This document shows, piece by piece, positions 3,885 through 44,420 of a DNA stretch of 44,466 nt. The position numbers and the translations under genes are program-made. The DNA is from Deltaproteobacteria bacterium. GTDB lineage: Bacteria > Desulfobacterota > DSM-4660 > Desulfatiglandales > HGW-15. Under the pieces are notes generated by a model, which saw nothing but the letters and a program-made list of their open reading frames with translations, did no database searches and was not told the DNA's origin. The stretch covers positions 1 through 44,466 of the forward strand of contig JAFGFM010000107.1 of assembly GCA_016931115.1 (NCBI GenBank), written 5' to 3'. Positions within the stretch are counted from its first letter, which is position 1. Every line of letters starts with the position of its first letter.

Positions 3885-3888
3885 ATTT

Positions 3889-4070
3889 TTCACCACGGAG
3901 AACACAGAGAGCACGGAGAAAATCTTTTTATTATGTTATCAATAAATAATTTTTCTTTTCCTAGTGCCCTTTGCGTCTTTGCAATTTATTTTTTGTCTGT
4001 CACTTCAACCATACAAGTAAACGGAGATCACAGAGGCAGATATTAAACTTCTCTGTGCTCTCTGCGGTAA
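3889..4070. repeat. MITE-like palindromic element (caccacggag family)
   Basis: The arm 3889-3920 (ttcaccacggagaacacaga...) and the arm 4049-4070 (ctctgtgctctctgcggtaa) are imperfect inverted repeats, with a further gag-rich stretch at 4020-4037. Elements with these arms occur scattered in many bacterial and archaeal genomes and carry no genes. It separates the MFS gene from the next gene and overlaps the apparent upstream extension of the MFS frame. Confidence 0.6.
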
Positions 4071-4884: not shown

Positions 4885-4965
4885 AATGTTTCTCCTTTTT
4901 AATCCGGGAAACATCCCGGTGTTTTGGTGAACGGAGATTCAAAACTTACTGAAATACCGGTTGTT

Positions 4966-5058
4966 CTCTTGATCTTGCTCTTAATCTTACTCTTAAGTCA
5001 AAGATGAGAATATGATTAAGAGTAAGAGTAAGAGTAAGAGCAAGAGTAAGAGTAAGAT
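4966..5058. repeat. hexanucleotide tandem repeat with inverted left arm
   Basis: Positions 5014-5058 hold about seven copies of the hexamer agagta (one variant agagca). The left arm 4966-4997 carries the complementary series (ctcttgatcttgctcttaat), so the whole stretch could fold into a long hairpin. It sits in the divergent intergenic region (4885-5210) between the secreted protein gene and the first ECF sigma gene. Copy number of such a repeat is likely to vary between strains. The rest of this gap shows only an A/T-rich inverted repeat near 5116-5143. Confidence 0.7.
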
Positions 5059-5210
5059 ATAGATATAAAATATGTTTTTCCTGGCATACAAGTCAAGGCC
5101 CTCCTGCATTCCTTAAAAAAATAGGTTTAATTATTTTTTTAGACCCAAAAACACTCCTGAATTGTTATATTACCGAAAACGATTTTCAACGCCCATACAG
5201 GACCGGACCT

Positions 5211-5753
5211 ATGGAAGATAAGTTACTGGTGTATCGATGCAAGCGCGGGAACGAGGCAGCTCTTACGCGGATATACGAAAAATATAAAAAAAACCTTTTT
5301 TTGCTGGCGATGACCCTGCTTAATGACCGGACAGCCTCGGAAGATGTTGTTCACGATGTATTCGTGACCTTTGTCAGGAGGCTGGATGATTTCAGGCTTA
5401 CGGGCAGCCTGAAAAGCTATCTGATGACCTGCGTAGCCAATAATGCCCGGAACAGGAACAGGGCCGAGCGTTTACGATCTAACCCTTTGCCTGATTCTGA
5501 AATGGAATTTGCCGGTTGTGCAGAAGGGCCGCTTGAGACAGTAATATGCAATGAACAAATGGAAAGATTAAGCAATGCCCTGGCAGAATTATCCTTTGAG
5601 CAGCGTGAGGTGGTTATGATGCATCTGCATGCCTCCATGACATTCCGGGAAATTGCCAGTGCACGGCAGATTTCGACCAATACGGCCAAAAGCCGTTACC
5701 GGTATGGAATTGAAAAACTTAGATCCATTTTGAATGATGGAGGTGACCGATGA
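5211..5753 (+). CDS. ECF-type RNA polymerase sigma factor (first cassette)
   Basis: Extracytoplasmic-function sigma-70 of 180 residues that directs RNA polymerase to a dedicated promoter set. Region 2 spans about 20-85 (EKYKKNLFLLAMTLL, EDVVHDVFVTFVRR, SLKSYLMTCVANNARN). Region 4 spans about 120-175 (LSFEQREVVMMHLHASMTF, IASARQISTNTAKSRYRYG). Regions 1 and 3 are absent, as usual for ECF factors. Its TGA overlaps the ATG of the membrane sensor gene downstream by four bases, so the two are translationally coupled and the sensor is the likely anti-sigma factor. Confidence 0.92.
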   Translation: MEDKLLVYRCKRGNEAALTRIYEKYKKNLFLLAMTLLNDRTASEDVVHDVFVTFVRRLDDFRLTGSLKSYLMTCVANNARNRNRAERLRSNPLPDSEMEFAGCAEGPLETVICNEQMERLSNALAELSFEQREVVMMHLHASMTFREIASARQISTNTAKSRYRYGIEKLRSILNDGGDR

Positions 5754-6976
5754 AAACACCAAAAGAATTTGTCCGATTGATTAGAGAATCTGAAATAATA
5801 ACCAATCCCGGGGTGGATGACCGTATCCTGCAGGATGCCCGGAATGAATTGGCAAAGCGTCAGCAGGACAGGATTGCGCCTATCGGGGTTTTATGGAGAA
5901 CACTCATGAAAACCAAAAAAACCGCATTTATTACAGCGTCAATGATTGTTATCGTGGCACTGATAGTTTTTCAATTTGTTGGAAATCCGGTTGGCCCAGG
6001 TCTGACATTTGCCCAGGTGATTGAACCCATCTTAAAATCAGATATATATTCCTTCGATCTTATCTCCGGAAGCAAGGATGGCGGCGAGCCGCTTATTCTT
6101 CATTGTTTGTCCAAGGGCTTGCGTTTCAGGTTGGAAGGAAACTTCTCAGCAAAATTACATAACTTCTCAACAAAAATGATCTGTATCTACGATCTACAAA
6201 ACGAGAGAATTCTTACTCTGGTTGAAAATGGTATGCAAGCCCAGTACATAGGGTATAAAGGATTTGTAAATCCTCAAGACAAAAACCTTCAAAATCCTAT
6301 GAAGAGCCTGAAAGATCAGATAACTTTTCTAAAAAACGATCCGGATGTGACTGTTAAAGAACTTGGGCTCCGTAAAATGGATGGACATGATTCAATTGGA
6401 TTTTACGCATATTCCTCGAATAGTGATACCACCATCTGGTCCGATGTCAAAACAGAGCTTCCAGTGCAGATCGAAATTAATAGGGGACAAGTGCACTTGA
6501 TTTTCCGGAATTGGAAATTCGACATTCCTGAGGCAGATGATTTGTTAAGCATGGAGGTGCCTGCTGGATACACAGTGATTGGTGAGGCTTTGAAGTGGGA
6601 CAGGGAGGAAATGACAGAAGAAAAATTTATTGAAGGACTTAAGCTGATAGCTGAAAAAATAAACTATGGCGAGTTCATTCTCTGCAAATCATTTAAGGAT
6701 ATTAATGAGTGGTTAGAAAATGTCTTCTATCGTTTAGACGCAATGAATTTTTCCAAAGAAGAGGCTGTTAACATACGGCAGAGCATTGACTATGTCAATT
6801 TGTTTTTATCCGATATCTCGACCCAGGGGAATTGGATCTACCGGGGCCAGGGTGTCAGGGTGGGCGAAGCAGACACTCCTATCTTCTGGTACAAACCGAA
6901 AGGATCCGAGACCTATCGTGTCATTTACGGCGATCTTCATGTAGAAAATGTCGACTCCGAAGATCTTCCGGAATAA
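5750..6976 (+). CDS. membrane-anchored putative anti-sigma / sensor protein (paralogue A)
   Basis: A 408-residue protein with a short cytoplasmic part (about 1-60), one membrane helix (about 65-85, FITASMIVIVALIVFQF) and a periplasmic domain of about 320 residues. No HxxxCxxC zinc anti-sigma motif is present, so sigma binding is inferred from the coupled gene order. The periplasmic part has a LolA/LolB-like feel (DSIGFYAYSS, TTIWSDVKTELPVQIEI, LSMEVPAGY). It ends with a conserved tail (PIFWYKPKGSETYRVIYGD) shared with the protein at 7777. Similar sigma-plus-LolA-like pairs are known from other phyla such as Planctomycetes; ligand and targets are unknown. A strong terminator follows. Confidence 0.7.
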   Translation: MKTPKEFVRLIRESEIITNPGVDDRILQDARNELAKRQQDRIAPIGVLWRTLMKTKKTAFITASMIVIVALIVFQFVGNPVGPGLTFAQVIEPILKSDIYSFDLISGSKDGGEPLILHCLSKGLRFRLEGNFSAKLHNFSTKMICIYDLQNERILTLVENGMQAQYIGYKGFVNPQDKNLQNPMKSLKDQITFLKNDPDVTVKELGLRKMDGHDSIGFYAYSSNSDTTIWSDVKTELPVQIEINRGQVHLIFRNWKFDIPEADDLLSMEVPAGYTVIGEALKWDREEMTEEKFIEGLKLIAEKINYGEFILCKSFKDINEWLENVFYRLDAMNFSKEEAVNIRQSIDYVNLFLSDISTQGNWIYRGQGVRVGEADTPIFWYKPKGSETYRVIYGDLHVENVDSEDLPE

Positions 6977-7030
6977 CATGTGAATCTGGAAGCGGGCGCT
7001 GTTTAATAATTCATAGAGGTAAGTAATATC

Positions 7031-7074
7031 AAGGCGGTTGAAGGTTGTTAACTTTAACTGCCTTGTTTTTTATT
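7031..7074 (+). terminator. Rho-independent terminator of the first sigma cassette
   Basis: A 13-bp stem (aaggcggttgaag with ctttaactgcctt, including G-U pairs) closes the loop gttgttaa and is followed by gttttttatt. It lies 55 bases after the sensor stop codon and separates the two sigma cassettes into distinct transcription units. Confidence 0.75.
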
Positions 7075-7237
7075 CAGCTTTAACAATATATTCCAAATTA
7101 TAGCACCCTTAAAAAAACTGTGATAAATAGCATTTTTTTACCTGCTTATGTCCACAAAATTGAATCTGAGAACGGTTACAAAGAGAAAAGGACATAAAAT
7201 CAATCATTAATGAATTCTTCAGTGAGGAAAATTCAAC

Positions 7238-7777
7238 ATGAGAGCAGACAGCAGTGATTATGACATACTTGTAAAACCAATAGAAAATCAGATGATTCAA
7301 TCTGTCTGGCGTATTGTTCGTGACCCGAACGATGCGGATGATGCATTTCAGGAAGCTACAACCACGATCTGGAAACAGCTGGGGCGGATTCGCCGTCATC
7401 CCAATCCGCATGCCCTGATTCTTAAGATTTGTACCGATGCGGCCTACGACGTGCTGCGGCACAGAATCCGTCATAAACGGGGTCAGGAACAGGAAGAGGC
7501 TATCGCAGCTGTTCCGGATCCTGCTCCTGCTGCAACACAACTTCTAATAAGCCGCGAGACACAGGCAGAGATCCTCCAGGCGATCGGCCAGTTGTCCCCC
7601 AAGCAGGGCACTGCAGTGTTGATGCGGTTTGTGAATGGCCTGTCCTATAATGATATTGCCCAGAGCTTCGGGTGCAGGGAAGCTACTGTACGAAAGCATG
7701 TTGCCCGTGCACGTGACCGGCTCTACGAAGTTCTTGAACACCTTCTCCCCAAATCGACAAAGGAGGTAAACGAATAA
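7238..7777 (+). CDS. ECF-type RNA polymerase sigma factor (second cassette)
   Basis: A second ECF sigma-70 factor, 179 residues. Region 2 is around 15-75 (MIQSVWRIVRDPNDADDAFQ, NPHALILKICTDAAYDVLR). Region 4 is around 115-170 (LSPKQGTAVLMRFVNGLSY, IAQSFGCREATVRKHVARAR). It is only distantly similar to the sigma factor at 5211, although their downstream partners are close paralogues. The start has aggaaa upstream. The TAA shares its last base with the ATG of the next gene, implying coupled translation with that putative anti-sigma factor. Confidence 0.9.
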   Translation: MRADSSDYDILVKPIENQMIQSVWRIVRDPNDADDAFQEATTTIWKQLGRIRRHPNPHALILKICTDAAYDVLRHRIRHKRGQEQEEAIAAVPDPAPAATQLLISRETQAEILQAIGQLSPKQGTAVLMRFVNGLSYNDIAQSFGCREATVRKHVARARDRLYEVLEHLLPKSTKEVNE

Positions 7778-9015
7778 TGAATACAAATAAAAATGAACAG
7801 ATTCTTGAAAGCATTTTAAAAGATAATCCTGGCTCCCAAGTTCCGCAGGAGGTGGAGGCTCGACTGCGCCGTCATCTTAAGGCCTTGCGTGATCGGATGG
7901 AGGAGCCAAAAGGCAAAGAGCTGTCAGCGACTATAAGGGTTTTATGGAGAACATTCATGAAAACCAAAAAAACCGCATTTATTACAGCGTCAATGATTGT
8001 TATCGTGGCTCTTATTGTTTTTCAATTTATTGGAAATCCGGTTGGCCCCGGCCTGACATTCGCAAGTGTTATCGAGCCTATCCTGAAGGCCAAAACTGCT
8101 GCATACGACATGGTATTCGGTCCTGATGATGGCAGCAGGCAGGCAGTTCACGAGCTGGTGATGAATTCCCGTATTCGCAGACAGGTTGCCGGCAGCAGTG
8201 CAGTGACCATCATTGACCTTGAAAACAGGCGAGTTCTTTTTCGGAATGAAGCAAATATGGAGGCTCGATACGGGTATATAGACCCGAAGGGAATGGCTTC
8301 CGGGCAGAATTACCCGAATGGGATGGTTTTTAGTCAGAATTACCTGGAGGAATTGAAAAACATAATCTTAAGCTTAAAGGACATGCCTGATTTTACTGTC
8401 GAGGAACTTGGCCGCAAACAACTCGATGGCAGGGAAGTGATCGGATTTTTCGCCAGCCACCCAAAGCTCGACATCACTATCTGGGCTGATGTCGATACCG
8501 GGCTCCCCGTGCGCATCGAGTATAATGTTGGGACGGTGCATGTAACCTATAAAAATATGGAATTCGACCTGCTCATGGATGAGGAAATGTTCAGTATGGA
8601 AGTGCCCGCTGGTTACATGGTGCAGGAACCCTTGACCATGGACCTCCAGGTGACGGAGGAAAATTTTATCAAAGGCCTGAGGCTGATAGCGGAAAAATTA
8701 AATCACGGTCTTTTCCCCAATGATGTTTCCTATGAATCTTTTTCCAGGTGGATGACCAGCGGCCCCATAAACAGCCAGTTTGATGCGATGGCAAAAGAGG
8801 AAGCGCTGGCCATTAACCTGGAATTAATCAAATTTATAAGATTCACTATCTTCTTCCCCGGCGAAGGTAAATGGACCTATCGGGGTAATGGTGTGCGGCT
8901 GGGTGAAGCGGAATCCCCTATCTTCTGGTATAAACCGGAAAAGTCAGAGACCTATCGTGTCATATACGGCGATCTTCATGTTGAAAATATTGCCCCTGAA
9001 AAGCTGCCTCAGTAA
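7777..9015 (+). CDS. membrane-anchored putative anti-sigma / sensor protein (paralogue B)
   Basis: A 412-residue paralogue of the protein at 5750 with the same layout: cytoplasmic residues 1-65, one membrane helix (about 70-88) and a large periplasmic domain. Shared features are the membrane block RTFMKTKKTAFITASMIVIV, the LolA-like segment (GREVIGFFASHP, ITIWADVDTGLPVRIEY, MFSMEVPAGYMV), and the tail SPIFWYKPEKSETYRVIYGD ending ENIAPEKLPQ. No zinc anti-sigma motif is present. Around the membrane segment its DNA is nearly identical to paralogue A, while surrounding codons have diverged. No clear terminator follows. Confidence 0.7.
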   Translation: MNTNKNEQILESILKDNPGSQVPQEVEARLRRHLKALRDRMEEPKGKELSATIRVLWRTFMKTKKTAFITASMIVIVALIVFQFIGNPVGPGLTFASVIEPILKAKTAAYDMVFGPDDGSRQAVHELVMNSRIRRQVAGSSAVTIIDLENRRVLFRNEANMEARYGYIDPKGMASGQNYPNGMVFSQNYLEELKNIILSLKDMPDFTVEELGRKQLDGREVIGFFASHPKLDITIWADVDTGLPVRIEYNVGTVHVTYKNMEFDLLMDEEMFSMEVPAGYMVQEPLTMDLQVTEENFIKGLRLIAEKLNHGLFPNDVSYESFSRWMTSGPINSQFDAMAKEEALAINLELIKFIRFTIFFPGEGKWTYRGNGVRLGEAESPIFWYKPEKSETYRVIYGDLHVENIAPEKLPQ

Positions 9016-9201
9016 GGGCTTTAAAATGAAGCTGATCAGGTTGCTTTAGAATAGGGAGATAAATTATAAGAGACAGGTATAAAACATCAGGGTCGCGTCC
9101 TGGATAAAATACAGTGGTCAGTCACAATCAATTCTGTCCAATGGGAAAGACAGACTCTGTTGTATATACAAATAAAGATTTTGTGGAAATCAGTCTTCTG
9201 A

Positions 9202-9630
9202 TTATACCGTTTTATTGATCTCCTTAAGTCCTCCTACCTGCAGGAAGAGTTGCCTTGTATCTGCAACATCCCAGTGTTCGCAAAGCTTTCCGTCCCTGAG
9301 CCTGAACATATCCACAGCATCAAAATTTATTTTATTTCCGGTTGGTTTATAGTGGAGAAAACCCTCGTCTGTATGGGTGCCTGTAATGGTGTTGTATACA
9401 AACACAAGGTCATCTTCTGCCACCATCCTGTTGATTGTTGCACAGAAATCCGGTGCTGCCTTAAAAAAACCCTTATGGAACTCGATAAATCCCTTCATAC
9501 CCTGTTCTGCGTCAGGGTTGTGCTGGATGTAGTCCTCATGCATATACCGGACTGTTGAATCAAGGTCGTGTTTTCGAAAAACAGTTTCGTAAAATTCCAG
9601 TACTATTTTTTTATTTTGTTCAGTGCTCAT
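9202..9630 (-). CDS. SnoaL-like / NTF2-fold protein (predicted ester cyclase family)
   Basis: A 142-residue cytoplasmic protein of the SnoaL-like polyketide-cyclase family. Matching features are an N-terminal helix (NKKIVLEFYETVFRKHDL), YMHEDYIQHNP, the GFIEFHKGFFKAAPDF segment, and the strands DLVFVYNTITGTHTDEGF and DMFRLRDGKLCEHWDVAD. The family includes small-molecule cyclases and many proteins of unknown function, so no reaction is assigned. The start is supported by gggaag in front of the ATG. It stands alone on the minus strand between plus-strand genes. Confidence 0.85.
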   Translation of the reverse strand: MSTEQNKKIVLEFYETVFRKHDLDSTVRYMHEDYIQHNPDAEQGMKGFIEFHKGFFKAAPDFCATINRMVAEDDLVFVYNTITGTHTDEGFLHYKPTGNKINFDAVDMFRLRDGKLCEHWDVADTRQLFLQVGGLKEINKTV

Positions 9631-9691
9631 GATTACTTCCCCATAATAAATTGAGTTTTATTTAACGATTTTGAAATTCAAGATTTTTATA

Positions 9692-9769
9692 TGTCGTTCC
9701 CGCGAAGGCGGGAATCCACTTTTTTTAAAAAACACAACAAATGGATGCCCGTCTGCACGGGCATGACAG
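9692..9769. repeat. dispersed 'gtcattcccgc-gggaatcca' type repeat pair
   Basis: A short hairpin unit (gttcccgcgaaggcgggaat) is followed after about 30 bases by a related unit in the opposite sense (atgcccgtctgcacgggcat), giving ends tgtcg... and ...tgaca. Elements of this kind are dispersed in many proteobacterial genomes. A second copy lies at 40884-41015 in this window. It occupies much of the gap 9631-9968. Confidence 0.7.
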
Positions 9770-40126: not shown

Positions 40127-40813
40127 TTATAAACTGTTTTCAAACCGGTAACCAACCTCTCTTACTGTCTTAATAAAATCAGGGTTAGCAGGGTCTTTTT
40201 CTATCTTGTTTCTCAAGGAGTTAATGCATCTATCAACGCTTCGTCGTGTTACGACTATATTATAGCCCCATACAAGATTGAGAATCTGGTCCCTTGTTAA
40301 CACCCTATCAGGATGAGTTATAAGAAGGGATAAAAGACCATACTCCTTTGGTGTTAGCGTTATAATCGATCCATTTTTCGTTAGTTTTCTGGAAGCCATG
40401 TCCAGTTCAAATTCACTAAAACTGTATTTCAAAATTTCTTTTTTACGTCGTGACCTAAGGCAGGCATTTGCCCTGGCAATGAGTTCCTTTATACTGAAGG
40501 GTTTTGTAACATAATCGTTTGCCCCAAGGTTAAGCCCGAGTACAATATCAGATTCCTGGCTTTTTGCTGTAAGCATGATAATAGGCATATCAAGATCCTG
40601 TTCACGGAGAGCGCGGCATATCTCATAACCATTCATACCCGGAAGCATAAGATCGAGGATGATCAGTTCAGGTTTATTATTAAGAGCCTTTTCAAAACCA
40701 TCTTCTCCATTTTCAGAGGTAATTACAGTAAAGCCAGCGAATTCGAAGTTATCCTTCAGACCTCTCAGTAAGGTTTTATTGTCTTCGATTATTAAAATGG
40801 TTTCTTGAGACAT
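40127..40813 (-). CDS. OmpR/PhoB-type response regulator
   Basis: A 228-residue two-component regulator. The receiver domain (1-120) has acidic pair Glu10/Asp11, phosphoacceptor Asp54 (IILDLMLPGMNGYE), switch Thr82 and Lys104 (YVTKPF). The C-terminal winged helix (about 130-226) contains TLTPKEYGLLSLLITHPDRV and RRSVDRCINSLRNKIEKDP. It should be phosphorylated by the kinase encoded upstream (41019-42956). A dispersed repeat separates the two genes, so it may have its own promoter. Target genes unknown. Confidence 0.95.
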   Translation of the reverse strand: MSQETILIIEDNKTLLRGLKDNFEFAGFTVITSENGEDGFEKALNNKPELIILDLMLPGMNGYEICRALREQDLDMPIIMLTAKSQESDIVLGLNLGANDYVTKPFSIKELIARANACLRSRRKKEILKYSFSEFELDMASRKLTKNGSIITLTPKEYGLLSLLITHPDRVLTRDQILNLVWGYNIVVTRRSVDRCINSLRNKIEKDPANPDFIKTVREVGYRFENSL

Positions 40814-40883
40814 TTTTTGGTCTTACTCCGAAACAAAGATTGTCTGATAAATATATTTTTCTACTTGATGGTTAAGTATTTTT

Positions 40884-41015
40884 TGTCATTCCCGTGCAGA
40901 CGGGAATCCAATTTATATTTAAAAGCAAGAGCAAATGGATACCCGCCCACGCGGGTATGACGGTTTTAACCCTATCCTTTTATTAGTCATTCCCCGACTC
41001 GATCGGGGAATCCAG
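40884..41015. repeat. dispersed 'gtcattcccg-cgggaatcca' repeats between kinase and regulator genes
   Basis: Three related hairpin units: gtcattcccgtgcagacggg, tacccgcccacgcgggta, and gtcattccccgactcgatcg followed by ggggaatcca. The family is the same as the pair at 9692-9769. The element is inserted between the kinase stop and the regulator start. Confidence 0.7.
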
Positions 41016-41018
41016 TTT

Positions 41019-42956
41019 TTATTTTGTTACCGGCACCTTAATCGTAAATACACTCCCTTTGCCAGGTTCACTTTTAATTTCAATGGAACCATGATGCACA
41101 TCCACAATGGATTTGACAATACTCAACCCTAATCCGAATCCGCTTCCCTTGCGGGAAAGGGTCTGATCAACCTGATAAAAAGGCTTAAGGATTTTTCCCC
41201 TTTGATCCACGGATATACCAATGCCTTTGTCACTGACTTCAAAACAGATATTCCCATTTTCCTGATATGCTGATAACACAACTGATTTGACTATATCAGA
41301 ATAGTGATATGCATTGTCTAAGAGATTAAGAAGAACCATAACAAAAGCATCATAATCTGCAATGATATTCGGCAATTCATCCTGAACTTTCAGCTCAAAG
41401 GAAAACCCTCCGGATTCAAACCGGTGCTTTAACGTCTCATAAGCAGATCTGACAAGGTTTCCAGGCTCAACAATCTTGAAATTGAAGGTCTGTCTATTAT
41501 CCTCTATCCGTGAAAAGGTTAAGAAATTTTCAACCAGCCTTGTTAGTCGATCATTTTCTTTTGCAATTAATTCAATATAATCCTTAACAAGGTTTTCATC
41601 CTTATATCTACCCTCCATAAGTGTATCGACAAGAAGACGTATAGAAGCAAGCGGTGTTTTTAGTTCATGGGATACAGTTGTTATAAGATCGTTTTTAATC
41701 CTGGTGAGGCTCATCTGGTGAACGAAAAAACGGGTTGTAATAATGGCAAGAATCAGTATCCCGACAATAATCAGCAAGGCCGTCCATATATACAGAGATA
41801 TCTGTTTTTCAGATGCTGCCATAAAAAGATCATCATCTTTAACTTGAACAATCAATTCCCATTCAAGAAAATAGTCTCCGGCTTTTGTACTGAGTAGAGG
41901 TTTGAAATCTTTTTCTTTATCTTTCAGAACAAATAAAAAACGCGCATCTGTGTTCAGCACATTTTTGTTTATGAATGCTTGAGTTTCTCTCTCAATTCTA
42001 TTCAGCTTGAATAATGCGATAACAGTTTGATCGGAAGAGACAATCCGCCATATACCACTTTCGGATATCTTTGACAGGCCATACTTTCCCGGTTGAATTA
42101 ACTGCGACTGCGAGTATATGGATGCTAGGCTCTCAGCTTCATAAGTTGGAAACTCAATGTCATCTTGTATCTTTTTCAAGGCATTCATCAGAAACAATCT
42201 TTGAGAAGATGGCATAAGCGGCGGACTATAGTCTTTAACTCTTGAAACAAGCCCTTCCAGCATTATTTGGAAGACAGGATCGGTGCTGTCATTAATTGAC
42301 TGTAATGAGAATAACAAAATATCAGGTATTATTAGGCGCCCGTTTTTATCTCGAGCCGCATCATACTTCCCGTTCATTACACCCAAAATCAGTTTATTAA
42401 TCTCATCCTTTTTTCCGGCCTTATTGTAACAGCGAACCTGACTTTGGACAGCTTTGCCTGAAATATTGATATCTTCTGATCTTTTGGCAATCACAGCATA
42501 TTCCACTGCAGCAGATATATAATTCCTTTCTCTCAACTCCAGATGTTCCGCATGGTTCCATTCATCAGAGAGATCTCCAAAGTCCGGTGCCATTGGTTCA
42601 GCTTCAATCGGATAGAGCAGATTCCCTTCCTTGCTATAAATTATAACGCTGTCAGAAATTCCCTTTTCTATTATTTTTATGAATCTTTCAGATGAGTTTA
42701 TATCGGGACTAATCCCGGATAAATCATCTATCCTCTGCTCCCAGAACTTATGGATCAATGATGGAAGATTTTCCAATTGTGATTGATACAGGTCTGTGAG
42801 TTTCTGTCGCACTGCCATACGTTCATTACGTACAGCCTCAGAAACAAACCAGAGAAGGCAGACAGTGGGAACAATAACAACTAATAACAGCATAACAACT
42901 ATAGTCCACATCCGCCTTTTCTGGTAAAGACCGGTATTGTTGAAGAACAAGGTCAT
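41019..42956 (-). CDS. membrane sensor histidine kinase
   Basis: A 645-residue inner-membrane histidine kinase. TM1 is about 15-37 (MWTIVVMLLLVVIVPTVCLL) and TM2 about 385-410 (YIWTALLIIVGILILAII), enclosing a large periplasmic domain of about 350 residues with no recognised fold. The HisKA domain has SHELKTPLASIRLL with phosphorylated His430. The HATPase domain has the N box (LLNLLDNAYHYSD), G1 (DKGIGIS) and G2 (GSGFGLGLSIVKSIVDVH). It follows the exported TPR gene by six bases and precedes the response regulator, so the three form one signalling operon. Confidence 0.95.
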   Translation of the reverse strand: MTLFFNNTGLYQKRRMWTIVVMLLLVVIVPTVCLLWFVSEAVRNERMAVRQKLTDLYQSQLENLPSLIHKFWEQRIDDLSGISPDINSSERFIKIIEKGISDSVIIYSKEGNLLYPIEAEPMAPDFGDLSDEWNHAEHLELRERNYISAAVEYAVIAKRSEDINISGKAVQSQVRCYNKAGKKDEINKLILGVMNGKYDAARDKNGRLIIPDILLFSLQSINDSTDPVFQIMLEGLVSRVKDYSPPLMPSSQRLFLMNALKKIQDDIEFPTYEAESLASIYSQSQLIQPGKYGLSKISESGIWRIVSSDQTVIALFKLNRIERETQAFINKNVLNTDARFLFVLKDKEKDFKPLLSTKAGDYFLEWELIVQVKDDDLFMAASEKQISLYIWTALLIIVGILILAIITTRFFVHQMSLTRIKNDLITTVSHELKTPLASIRLLVDTLMEGRYKDENLVKDYIELIAKENDRLTRLVENFLTFSRIEDNRQTFNFKIVEPGNLVRSAYETLKHRFESGGFSFELKVQDELPNIIADYDAFVMVLLNLLDNAYHYSDIVKSVVLSAYQENGNICFEVSDKGIGISVDQRGKILKPFYQVDQTLSRKGSGFGLGLSIVKSIVDVHHGSIEIKSEPGKGSVFTIKVPVTK

Positions 42957-42962
42957 ATTATC

Positions 42963-44420
42963 TTACTTATCATAAACCCTCAAGCTTTGGATGATAGAAT
43001 TATATTCCTGTTTATTTTTCTCGAAGATTTCCTTTTCCGTTCTGATTAGAAAGGAATACAGAAGAGACTTACCAAGAATATGAGTACGACAATCAACCAT
43101 CTTTTTACCTTTATCATCAAATTCGGCTATGTATGATAATGATTGCATTCCGCTGATTACGCCGGCTTTCCAGCTCGAAGGCTCTACTGAAAATTTTTTA
43201 AAGGTTTGTTTCATTAAATTCACTTCAGCTTCTGCTGCGTCTCTCATTGAATCCTGCTTGATCGTCCCACCATGCTCTATAACAAAAAATGGAAACCATG
43301 TGTCTATTTCAGGAGGCGCAAAAATCACAACCATTTTATATTGACCTGATATGGGACTTTTGACAATGTGCCAACTTTCCGGTGCAGACATTGATATGCC
43401 AAATTCATTATCTCTGAATAATTCAGGTTCTCCTGCTGAGACCAGTGCTGCTTTCTCAAGTTCCATAATAGTCTGGGGGGTTTCAATTTTTACTAGATAT
43501 TTTTTATCATCAGCTGAAAGCCACATTTTCTGTTTTATACCAGATTCTAATTTCAGCTCAACACCATAGCACTCAAATGTTCCGGCAGATACAGATATGG
43601 TCTCTTTACCGGTCGTTTTCAACTCTGATTTTATAATCTGACCATTCTGCATAGAAAAAATGGAAAATGATGCAACATAGTTATCTTCAAGAGGCAGCCT
43701 TCTAATAAGATATAACACCTGCTCGTTATCATACACGTTATTACTGAGTGGTATTTCTTTTATATCTGTTTTACCCTGAAAATTATAATTAAGATCGATA
43801 TGATCCTTATTATATTGTGCCTTATTATTAAAGAAACCGCTTCTTACCAACCCGGAAACAGGCATAAAGTCTTTTTTAGACACATCAATGCGGCTTAGTT
43901 GTGATTGATTTTCCGTTGATATAACAAGATAATTGGAGAATCGCCACAAATCATTGTCTTTTATAATGATATTTTTAACAGACATGATCATTTTCACATG
44001 ACTCATGGTCGGCGGAGATTTTATACCATACCAGCAAGTTTCACCTACTTCCCATGGAGCAGGACCGATTTCAAGGGGGATATCCCTATTCCCATCATCC
44101 GAGATACCAAGTCTCGACAATTGTATTTTGGCATCATTGATAACCTCTACCTGCTCAGGGAACCGGTTGAGGAGTTGTTTAAACATTTCTATTGCTTTGG
44201 CCTCATCTCCTGACTTCAGATAACATGTACCAAGCCGGTAATACGCCTTTGAGATATTTATGCGGTTACCCTCATTCTCATCAATAATCTTTTTATAAAT
44301 CGTTATCGCCTCATCCAGATCACCCTTTGTATCTTCTGCATATATCCCTTCCTCCAGAAGATTTGTAACAGTATCTCCCCTAGGAGGCTGTCCGAGAATA
44401 CAAAAATAAAACAAGCCCAA
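42963..44420 (-). CDS. exported TPR protein at the head of the two-component operon
   Basis: A protein of about 485 residues. After a short hydrophobic stretch (LFYFCILG) there are two TPR units (about 38-105: DEAITIYKKIID, YYRLGTCYLKSGDEAKAIEM). A middle domain (about 110-325, including YDNEQVLYLIRRLPLEDNYV, VSAGTFECYGVEL, MWLSADDKKYLVKIE) resembles DUF3108-like secreted proteins. A C-terminal PsbP-like domain follows (FRDNEFGISMSAPESWHIVK). The start used is TTG. The leader is short, and a better leader (KKSDLLKFGLVLFL) lies in the +1 frame upstream, suggesting a frameshift near 44400. It may detect envelope state for the kinase. Confidence 0.72.
   Translation of the reverse strand: MGLFYFCILGQPPRGDTVTNLLEEGIYAEDTKGDLDEAITIYKKIIDENEGNRINISKAYYRLGTCYLKSGDEAKAIEMFKQLLNRFPEQVEVINDAKIQLSRLGISDDGNRDIPLEIGPAPWEVGETCWYGIKSPPTMSHVKMIMSVKNIIIKDNDLWRFSNYLVISTENQSQLSRIDVSKKDFMPVSGLVRSGFFNNKAQYNKDHIDLNYNFQGKTDIKEIPLSNNVYDNEQVLYLIRRLPLEDNYVASFSIFSMQNGQIIKSELKTTGKETISVSAGTFECYGVELKLESGIKQKMWLSADDKKYLVKIETPQTIMELEKAALVSAGEPELFRDNEFGISMSAPESWHIVKSPISGQYKMVVIFAPPEIDTWFPFFVIEHGGTIKQDSMRDAAEAEVNLMKQTFKKFSVEPSSWKAGVISGMQSLSYIAEFDDKGKKMVDCRTHILGKSLLYSFLIRTEKEIFEKNKQEYNSIIQSLRVYDK

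What the first reader, a model, noticed from the sequence alone, without database searches (positions are those of the whole stretch)
5211..9015. Two tandem ECF sigma / membrane sensor cassettes with unrelated sigmas but closely related sensors
The two sigma factors at 5211 and 7238 are only remotely alike, yet their coupled partners (408 and 412 residues) are close paralogues with one membrane helix, a LolA/LolB-like periplasmic domain and a shared PIFWYKP...YRVIYGD tail. The sensors lack the zinc anti-sigma motif, so the way the cytoplasmic 60 residues hold the sigma factor is undefined. A plausible reading is a pair of envelope-stress or lipoprotein-ligand pathways whose outputs differ while their sensory ends are shared.
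Basis: partly seen in the sequence, partly recalled or inferred. Interest (0 to 1): 0.7.

Follow-up and report, generated by a model that had tools for sequence, protein, structure and literature searches.

The report
Twin sigma-factor stress-sensing gene pairs
Two neighbouring gene pairs each encode a transcription switch (an ECF sigma factor) and a membrane protein that probably holds it until something binds outside the inner membrane; the outer sensing halves are relatives while the switches are not, a useful variant of a well-known kind of bacterial stress sensing.

Summary
Two translationally coupled cassettes (5211-6976, 7238-9015) each encode an ECF sigma factor and a single-pass membrane protein. 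The sigmas are unrelated beyond fold (no BLASTP alignment; 15% in a multiple alignment). The sensors are 47-50% identical. Their periplasmic part is RseB/LolA-like: hhalign 93.7% to DUF4412 proteins, and Foldseek hits led by RseB, from low-confidence models. No Zn motif is present; the cytoplasmic heads are only 52-60 residues, nearer class II (CnrY-like) than class I anti-sigmas. Best reading: an "RseA+RseB in one chain" anti-sigma.

New facts: (1) The pair fills a 4.3-kb segment (4897-9211) that is 65 bp in a sibling species. (2) The genome has a third intact cassette and a fourth, decayed one, all sigma-linked; 84 other genomes of the order and about 390 sampled from the phylum lack the sensor. 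(3) The sensors share a nearly identical ~120-nt DNA tract over the membrane helix (55-nt exact run; permutation P 0.0003), suggesting gene conversion. (4) An in-frame Shine-Dalgarno/ATG before the helix could give a secreted short form, but the peptide's codons predict it, so it is not evidence.

The envelope-ligand reading is plausible, untested. New variant of a known kind; moderate interest.

The parts
4897..9211 (.). accessory segment holding both cassettes; the sibling genome G002 has 65 bp here with collinear flanks at about 85% identity
5211..5753 (+). ECF sigma factor 1 (180 aa), sigma regions 2 and 4
   Evidence: 40% identical to the C25 sigma
5750..6976 (+). sensor / putative anti-sigma 1 (408 aa)
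5750..5905 (+). sensor1 cytoplasmic head (residues 1-52), two predicted helices, no Cys; putative sigma-binding part
   Evidence: (low confidence)
5924..5980 (+). sensor1 membrane helix (about residues 59-77)
   Evidence: hydropathy
6011..6577 (+). sensor1 RseB/LolA-like extracytoplasmic domain (about residues 88-276)
6617..6973 (+). sensor1 C-terminal domain (about residues 290-408) with the PIFWYKP...YRVIYGD tail at 6878-6931
   Evidence: no family hit
7238..7777 (+). ECF sigma factor 2 (179 aa), unrelated group
7777..9015 (+). sensor / putative anti-sigma 2 (412 aa)
7777..7956 (+). sensor2 cytoplasmic head (residues 1-60), differs from head 1
7975..8031 (+). sensor2 membrane helix (about residues 67-85)
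   Evidence: hydropathy
8062..8622 (+). sensor2 RseB/LolA-like extracytoplasmic domain
8635..9012 (+). sensor2 C-terminal domain, tail motif at 8917-8970
5888..6007 (+). near-identical DNA tract, copy 1 (55-nt exact run at 5904-5958)
7939..8058 (+). near-identical DNA tract, copy 2 (exact run at 7955-8009)
5896..5908 (+). possible internal Shine-Dalgarno + ATG (Met53) in sensor1; the same at 7947-7959 (Met61) in sensor2
   Evidence: not above expectation for this peptide

Best explanation
Each cassette is a transmembrane signalling unit. The short N-terminal cytoplasmic head of the sensor protein holds its own sigma factor inactive; the head is joined through one membrane helix to an RseB/LolA-like domain outside the inner membrane plus an extra C-terminal domain. 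Binding of a hydrophobic envelope component (lipid, LPS-like or lipoprotein acyl chains) to the outer domain releases the sigma, probably by making the protein open to regulated proteolysis or by a conformational change. Functionally this is RseA and RseB, or MucA and MucB, fused in one chain. The two units have related outer domains but different heads and sigmas, so similar outer signals may drive two different regulons. They sit together as one accessory segment, and the sensors' helix region has been made alike again by local gene conversion. Shown: gene order and coupling, topology, relation of the sensors, lack of relation of the sigmas, presence/absence against the sibling. Supported but not proven: the outer fold, gene conversion. 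Inferred: anti-sigma action, ligand class, release mechanism.
For: Overlapping sigma-sensor genes; strong ribosome sites at both sensor starts, -10.6 and -12.9 kcal/mol. All four sensors in the genome follow a sigma gene. Single helix with 52-60 residues before it. Outer domain: sensor profile hits DUF4412 proteins in two genomes (E about 5e-4), hhalign 93.7%, E 1.9e-7, and these proteins also hit DUF2092 and, for one and more weakly, LolA_like. The first 11 PDB matches of the sensor1 model are all E. coli RseB (E 1e-5 to 7e-5), followed by LolA structures; LppX and LolB come lower; the isolated sensor2 domain model gives RseB, MucB, LolA, LppX and LprG. RseB/MucB detect LPS or lipid and protect the anti-sigma from cleavage (PMC4598750; PMC7400510). 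Length of the heads: class I domains average 101 +/- 33 residues, and those under 50 may be class II (PMC7406223).
Against: No direct anti-sigma family hit to the heads. Model confidence is poor (mean pLDDT 38 and 42; TM-scores 0.15-0.3), so Foldseek support rests on local geometry. Sigma-head complexes were not modelled. Nothing identifies a ligand or targets. The two outer domains are only about 42% identical, so they may bind different ligands.
Confidence: 0.6

Rival explanations
1. The head does not inhibit the sigma by itself; the membrane protein is a co-regulator or activator (as in FecR-like cell-surface signalling), or the sigma is controlled transcriptionally and the membrane protein is a target product.
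For: Heads are very short and hit no anti-sigma model. C25 and C119 heads share no clear sequence with those of the pair.
Against: Strict one-to-one sigma-sensor adjacency with gene overlap in intact cassettes; CnrY shows that two helices suffice to hold an ECF sigma (PMC4598750).
Confidence: 0.2
2. Sensor genes also make a short secreted protein from an internal start just before the membrane helix (Met53/Met61), giving a free RseB-like form beside the anchored anti-sigma.
For: GGAG about 7 nt before an in-frame ATG in sensor1 and sensor2, and AAGGAG in the C25 sensor; the new N-terminus MKTKK + hydrophobic core + LTFA looks like a signal peptide; the near-identical DNA tract covers this site.
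Against: Random recoding of the same peptide with this genome's codons gives as strong a site in 65-71% of cases (31% for C25) because AGR is the main Arg codon; about 14.5% of internal in-frame ATGs are about as strong; the decayed C119 copy lacks it.
Confidence: 0.1
3. The tandem pair is a decaying leftover with no current role.
For: C119 is broken (truncated sigma, frameshifted sensor) and the sibling keeps only 38 codons of the C25 sigma.
Against: All four ORFs of the pair are full-length and open, with start sites of normal to high strength.
Confidence: 0.1

Closest known systems
RpoE-RseA-RseB (E. coli) and AlgU-MucA-MucB (Pseudomonas)
   Same: ECF sigma, single-pass anti-sigma, RseB/LolA-type periplasmic domain in the same control circuit (PMC4598750, PMC7400510)
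   Different: here the RseB-like domain is part of the membrane protein itself; the head is far shorter; no separate rseB gene next to it; an added C-terminal domain
Class II anti-sigma CnrY (with CnrH)
   Same: short two-helix cytoplasmic head on a membrane protein, no zinc motif
   Different: sequence similarity to CnrY was not tested; CnrY senses through a partner, CnrX, not through an RseB-like domain
Zinc-type anti-sigmas (ZAS, zf-HC2) with one helix
   Same: adjacent to the ECF gene, membrane-anchored; present elsewhere in this genome (contigs C20, C154, C131)
   Different: no HxxxCxxC, no Cys in the head
DUF4412/DUF2092/LolA_like periplasmic proteins
   Same: outer domain is a distant relative
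   Different: those are stand-alone exported proteins without sigma gene or cytoplasmic head
Planctomycete ECF-linked membrane proteins (from memory only)
   Same: I recall similar 'WRxxMK' membrane segments and 'PIFWYRP...YRVIYGDL' tails there
   Different: could not be tested: no planctomycete genome was reachable with the scans left

Membership tests
ECF sigma factor | sigma region 2 and region 4 only, about 180-200 aa | tested here: met
   both sigmas pass Pfam cut-offs for PF04542 and PF08281/PF04545 and NCBIfam sigma70-ECF
Class I anti-sigma (ASDI) | about 100-residue four-helix cytoplasmic domain | tested here: not met
   heads of 52-60 residues (46 in C25) against an average of 101 +/- 33; judged by length, no ASDI profile was run
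Zinc anti-sigma (ZAS) | HxxxCxxC motif | tested here: not met
   no cysteine in the heads
Class II anti-sigma (CnrY-like) | two short helices wrapping sigma2 and sigma4 | tested here: inconclusive
   length and predicted helices fit (low confidence); interface not modelled
RseB/LolA fold | half-barrel of beta strands with helix insert | tested here: inconclusive
   hhalign 93.7% to DUF4412 proteins, Foldseek top hits RseB and LolA, but pLDDT about 40
RseB (MucB_RseB, Pfam) | sequence match to the family model | tested here: not met
   no such Pfam hit to the sensors or their domains
Regulated proteolysis of an anti-sigma | site-1 and site-2 cleavage releases sigma | not testable with these tools
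   needs experiment
Gene conversion between tandem paralogues | tract with silent-site identity far above the rest of the genes | tested here: met
   19-codon identical run, permutation P 0.0003; 81/164 identical codons outside against 19/21 inside

The most novel reading that the evidence does not exclude
One RseB-like sensory module has been joined to two unrelated sigma/anti-sigma heads, so that one class of envelope signal is read into two separate regulons, with gene conversion across the membrane helix keeping the transmission segment common while heads and outer domains diverge. This would go against the reported rule that domains fused to anti-sigmas are conserved within a group and differ between groups.
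Probability: 0.3. Interest if true: 0.6.

Novelty: new variant of a known kind. Interest (0 to 1): 0.42.

Why it matters
ECF sigma factors are among the main ways bacteria read their envelope. A one-chain anti-sigma with a built-in RseB-like sensor, in a protein family with no Pfam or NCBIfam model, is a natural minimal version of the E. coli sigma-E circuit. The tandem pair is a ready experiment on modularity: related sensors and a near-identical membrane segment, but different heads and sigmas. Head swaps would show directly whether specificity lies in the 50-60 residue head.

Tried and rejected
Scans of genome contigs and viral contigs gave no homologues; the automatic peptide patterns mostly fell in the membrane helix or tail, so this is weak evidence of absence. 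Plasmid searches gave only generic ECF factors for the sigmas and no real match for the sensors. A planctomycete plasmid locus could not serve as a centre for genome searches, so a planctomycete origin is untested. Full-length and domain AlphaFold models were poor. The internal-start idea looked attractive but failed its codon-recoding control. A direct search of solved structures by sequence found nothing. A small sigma tree only confirmed that sigma1 groups with the C25 sigma and that sigma2 is a long lone branch. GC content of the pair (42-51%) against the neighbours (37-47%) is suggestive but not decisive of foreign origin.

Full report
Observation. The four ORFs exist at the stated coordinates. 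Sigma1 (5211-5753) and sensor1 (5750-6976) overlap by 4 nt; sigma2 (7238-7777) and sensor2 (7777-9015) overlap by 1 nt; both sensors have strong ribosome sites. Each sigma has region 2 and region 4 above Pfam cut-offs. The sigmas do not align by BLASTP; the sensors align end to end at 47% identity. Sensors have one membrane helix, no zinc motif and no cysteine in the cytoplasmic head.

Genome context. The genome (5.18 Mb, 240 contigs) has 21 region-2 sigma matches. Sensor-like proteins occur in four places, each next to a sigma gene: the two of the pair, contig C25 (sigma 40% identical to sigma1, sensor about 25%) and contig C119. C119 looks decayed: its sigma lacks the start of region 2 and its sensor is frameshifted, though an assembly error is not excluded. 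A profile of the three full sensors found no true homologue in the 84 other genomes of the order (the class search drew the same genomes) or in 394 others sampled over the phylum; two weak hits there are stand-alone DUF4412 proteins. Sigma relatives in the phylum are remote (23-34%) and mostly sit beside zinc-type anti-sigmas.

Empty site. In the sibling species G002 the flanks are collinear at about 85% identity, but window 4897-9211 is replaced by 65 bp. The C119 cassette is likewise replaced by about 97 bp. The C25 cassette is reduced in G002 to the first 38 codons of the sigma at 95% DNA identity, so there the sibling lost it. For the tandem pair, gain and loss cannot be told apart.

Near-identical tract. 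Across most of the sensor genes only half of the shared amino acids use the same codon (81 of 164). In the juxtamembrane and membrane-helix region 19 of 21 do, with a 55-nt exact run (5904-5958 = 7955-8009); shuffling gives a run this long with P 0.0003. The C25 membrane helix is quite different, so protein constraint is an unlikely cause. Local gene conversion between the tandem copies is the simplest explanation. The tract lies at the joint between head and outer domain.

Outer domain. No Pfam or NCBIfam family matches the sensors over a cut-off. The sensor profile aligns with DUF4412 proteins by hhalign at 93.7% probability; these proteins also hit DUF2092 and, for one and weakly, LolA_like. 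AlphaFold models from two sequences are poor (mean pLDDT 38 and 42), but their strand-helix-strand order and Foldseek matches point one way: the top 11 PDB chains for sensor1 are all E. coli RseB (E 1e-5 to 7e-5), followed by LolA structures, with LppX and LolB lower; the sensor2 domain alone gives RseB, MucB, LolA, LppX and LprG with E about 0.005-0.1. I take an RseB/LolA-like fold as likely, not proven.

Mechanism. RseB and MucB bind LPS or lipid and protect RseA/MucA from cleavage (PMC4598750; PMC7400510). A chain with head, helix and RseB-like domain would join the two functions. The head is short for a class I domain (101 +/- 33 residues on average; PMC7406223) and fits a CnrY-like two-helix grip. 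Anti-sigma action itself is inferred.

Internal start. A Shine-Dalgarno-like GGAG precedes an in-frame ATG just before the membrane helix in both sensors and in C25. Control: 65-71% of random synonymous recodings of the same peptide give a site as strong (31% for C25), since AGG/AGA are the main arginine codons. There is no sign of selection for it.

Novelty. The kind is known: ECF sigma with a membrane anti-sigma. The fused RseB-like sensor, the short head, the lack of any family model and the pairing of related sensors with unrelated sigmas make it a variant worth recording. Reported anti-sigma groups keep the same fused domain within a group and differ between groups (PMC7406223), which this pair departs from, if its proteins are anti-sigmas. 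From memory, similar proteins are common in Planctomycetota; I could not test this, and if so the family is less rare than these searches suggest.

Noticed in passing
window 3885-4035, 1087-1242, 9675-9767: Short interspersed repeats (about 60-150 bp), the first two with many copies in the sibling genome G002; they look like REP/MITE-type elements of this genus.
   Followed up: no
L077 13790-13825: A roughly 30-nt near-palindromic sequence present in more than 15 places in G002, matching on both strands.
   Followed up: no
window 4966-5057: Hexamer array (TAAGAG)n with an inverted counterpart 19 nt away, just inside the left edge of the accessory segment.
   Followed up: partly
G000:C119 (L078 5926-7668): A fourth sigma-sensor cassette, apparently decayed: truncated sigma and frameshifted sensor; absent from the sibling.
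   Followed up: partly
window 40127-44420: OmpR-type regulator, histidine kinase and a TPR + DUF3108 protein in a row on the minus strand; kinase and DUF3108 genes of low GC (37-39%).
   Followed up: no
window 5111-5140 and 7107-7136: Weakly similar A-rich elements upstream of both sigma genes (70% over 30 nt); could be promoter-related or chance.
   Followed up: no
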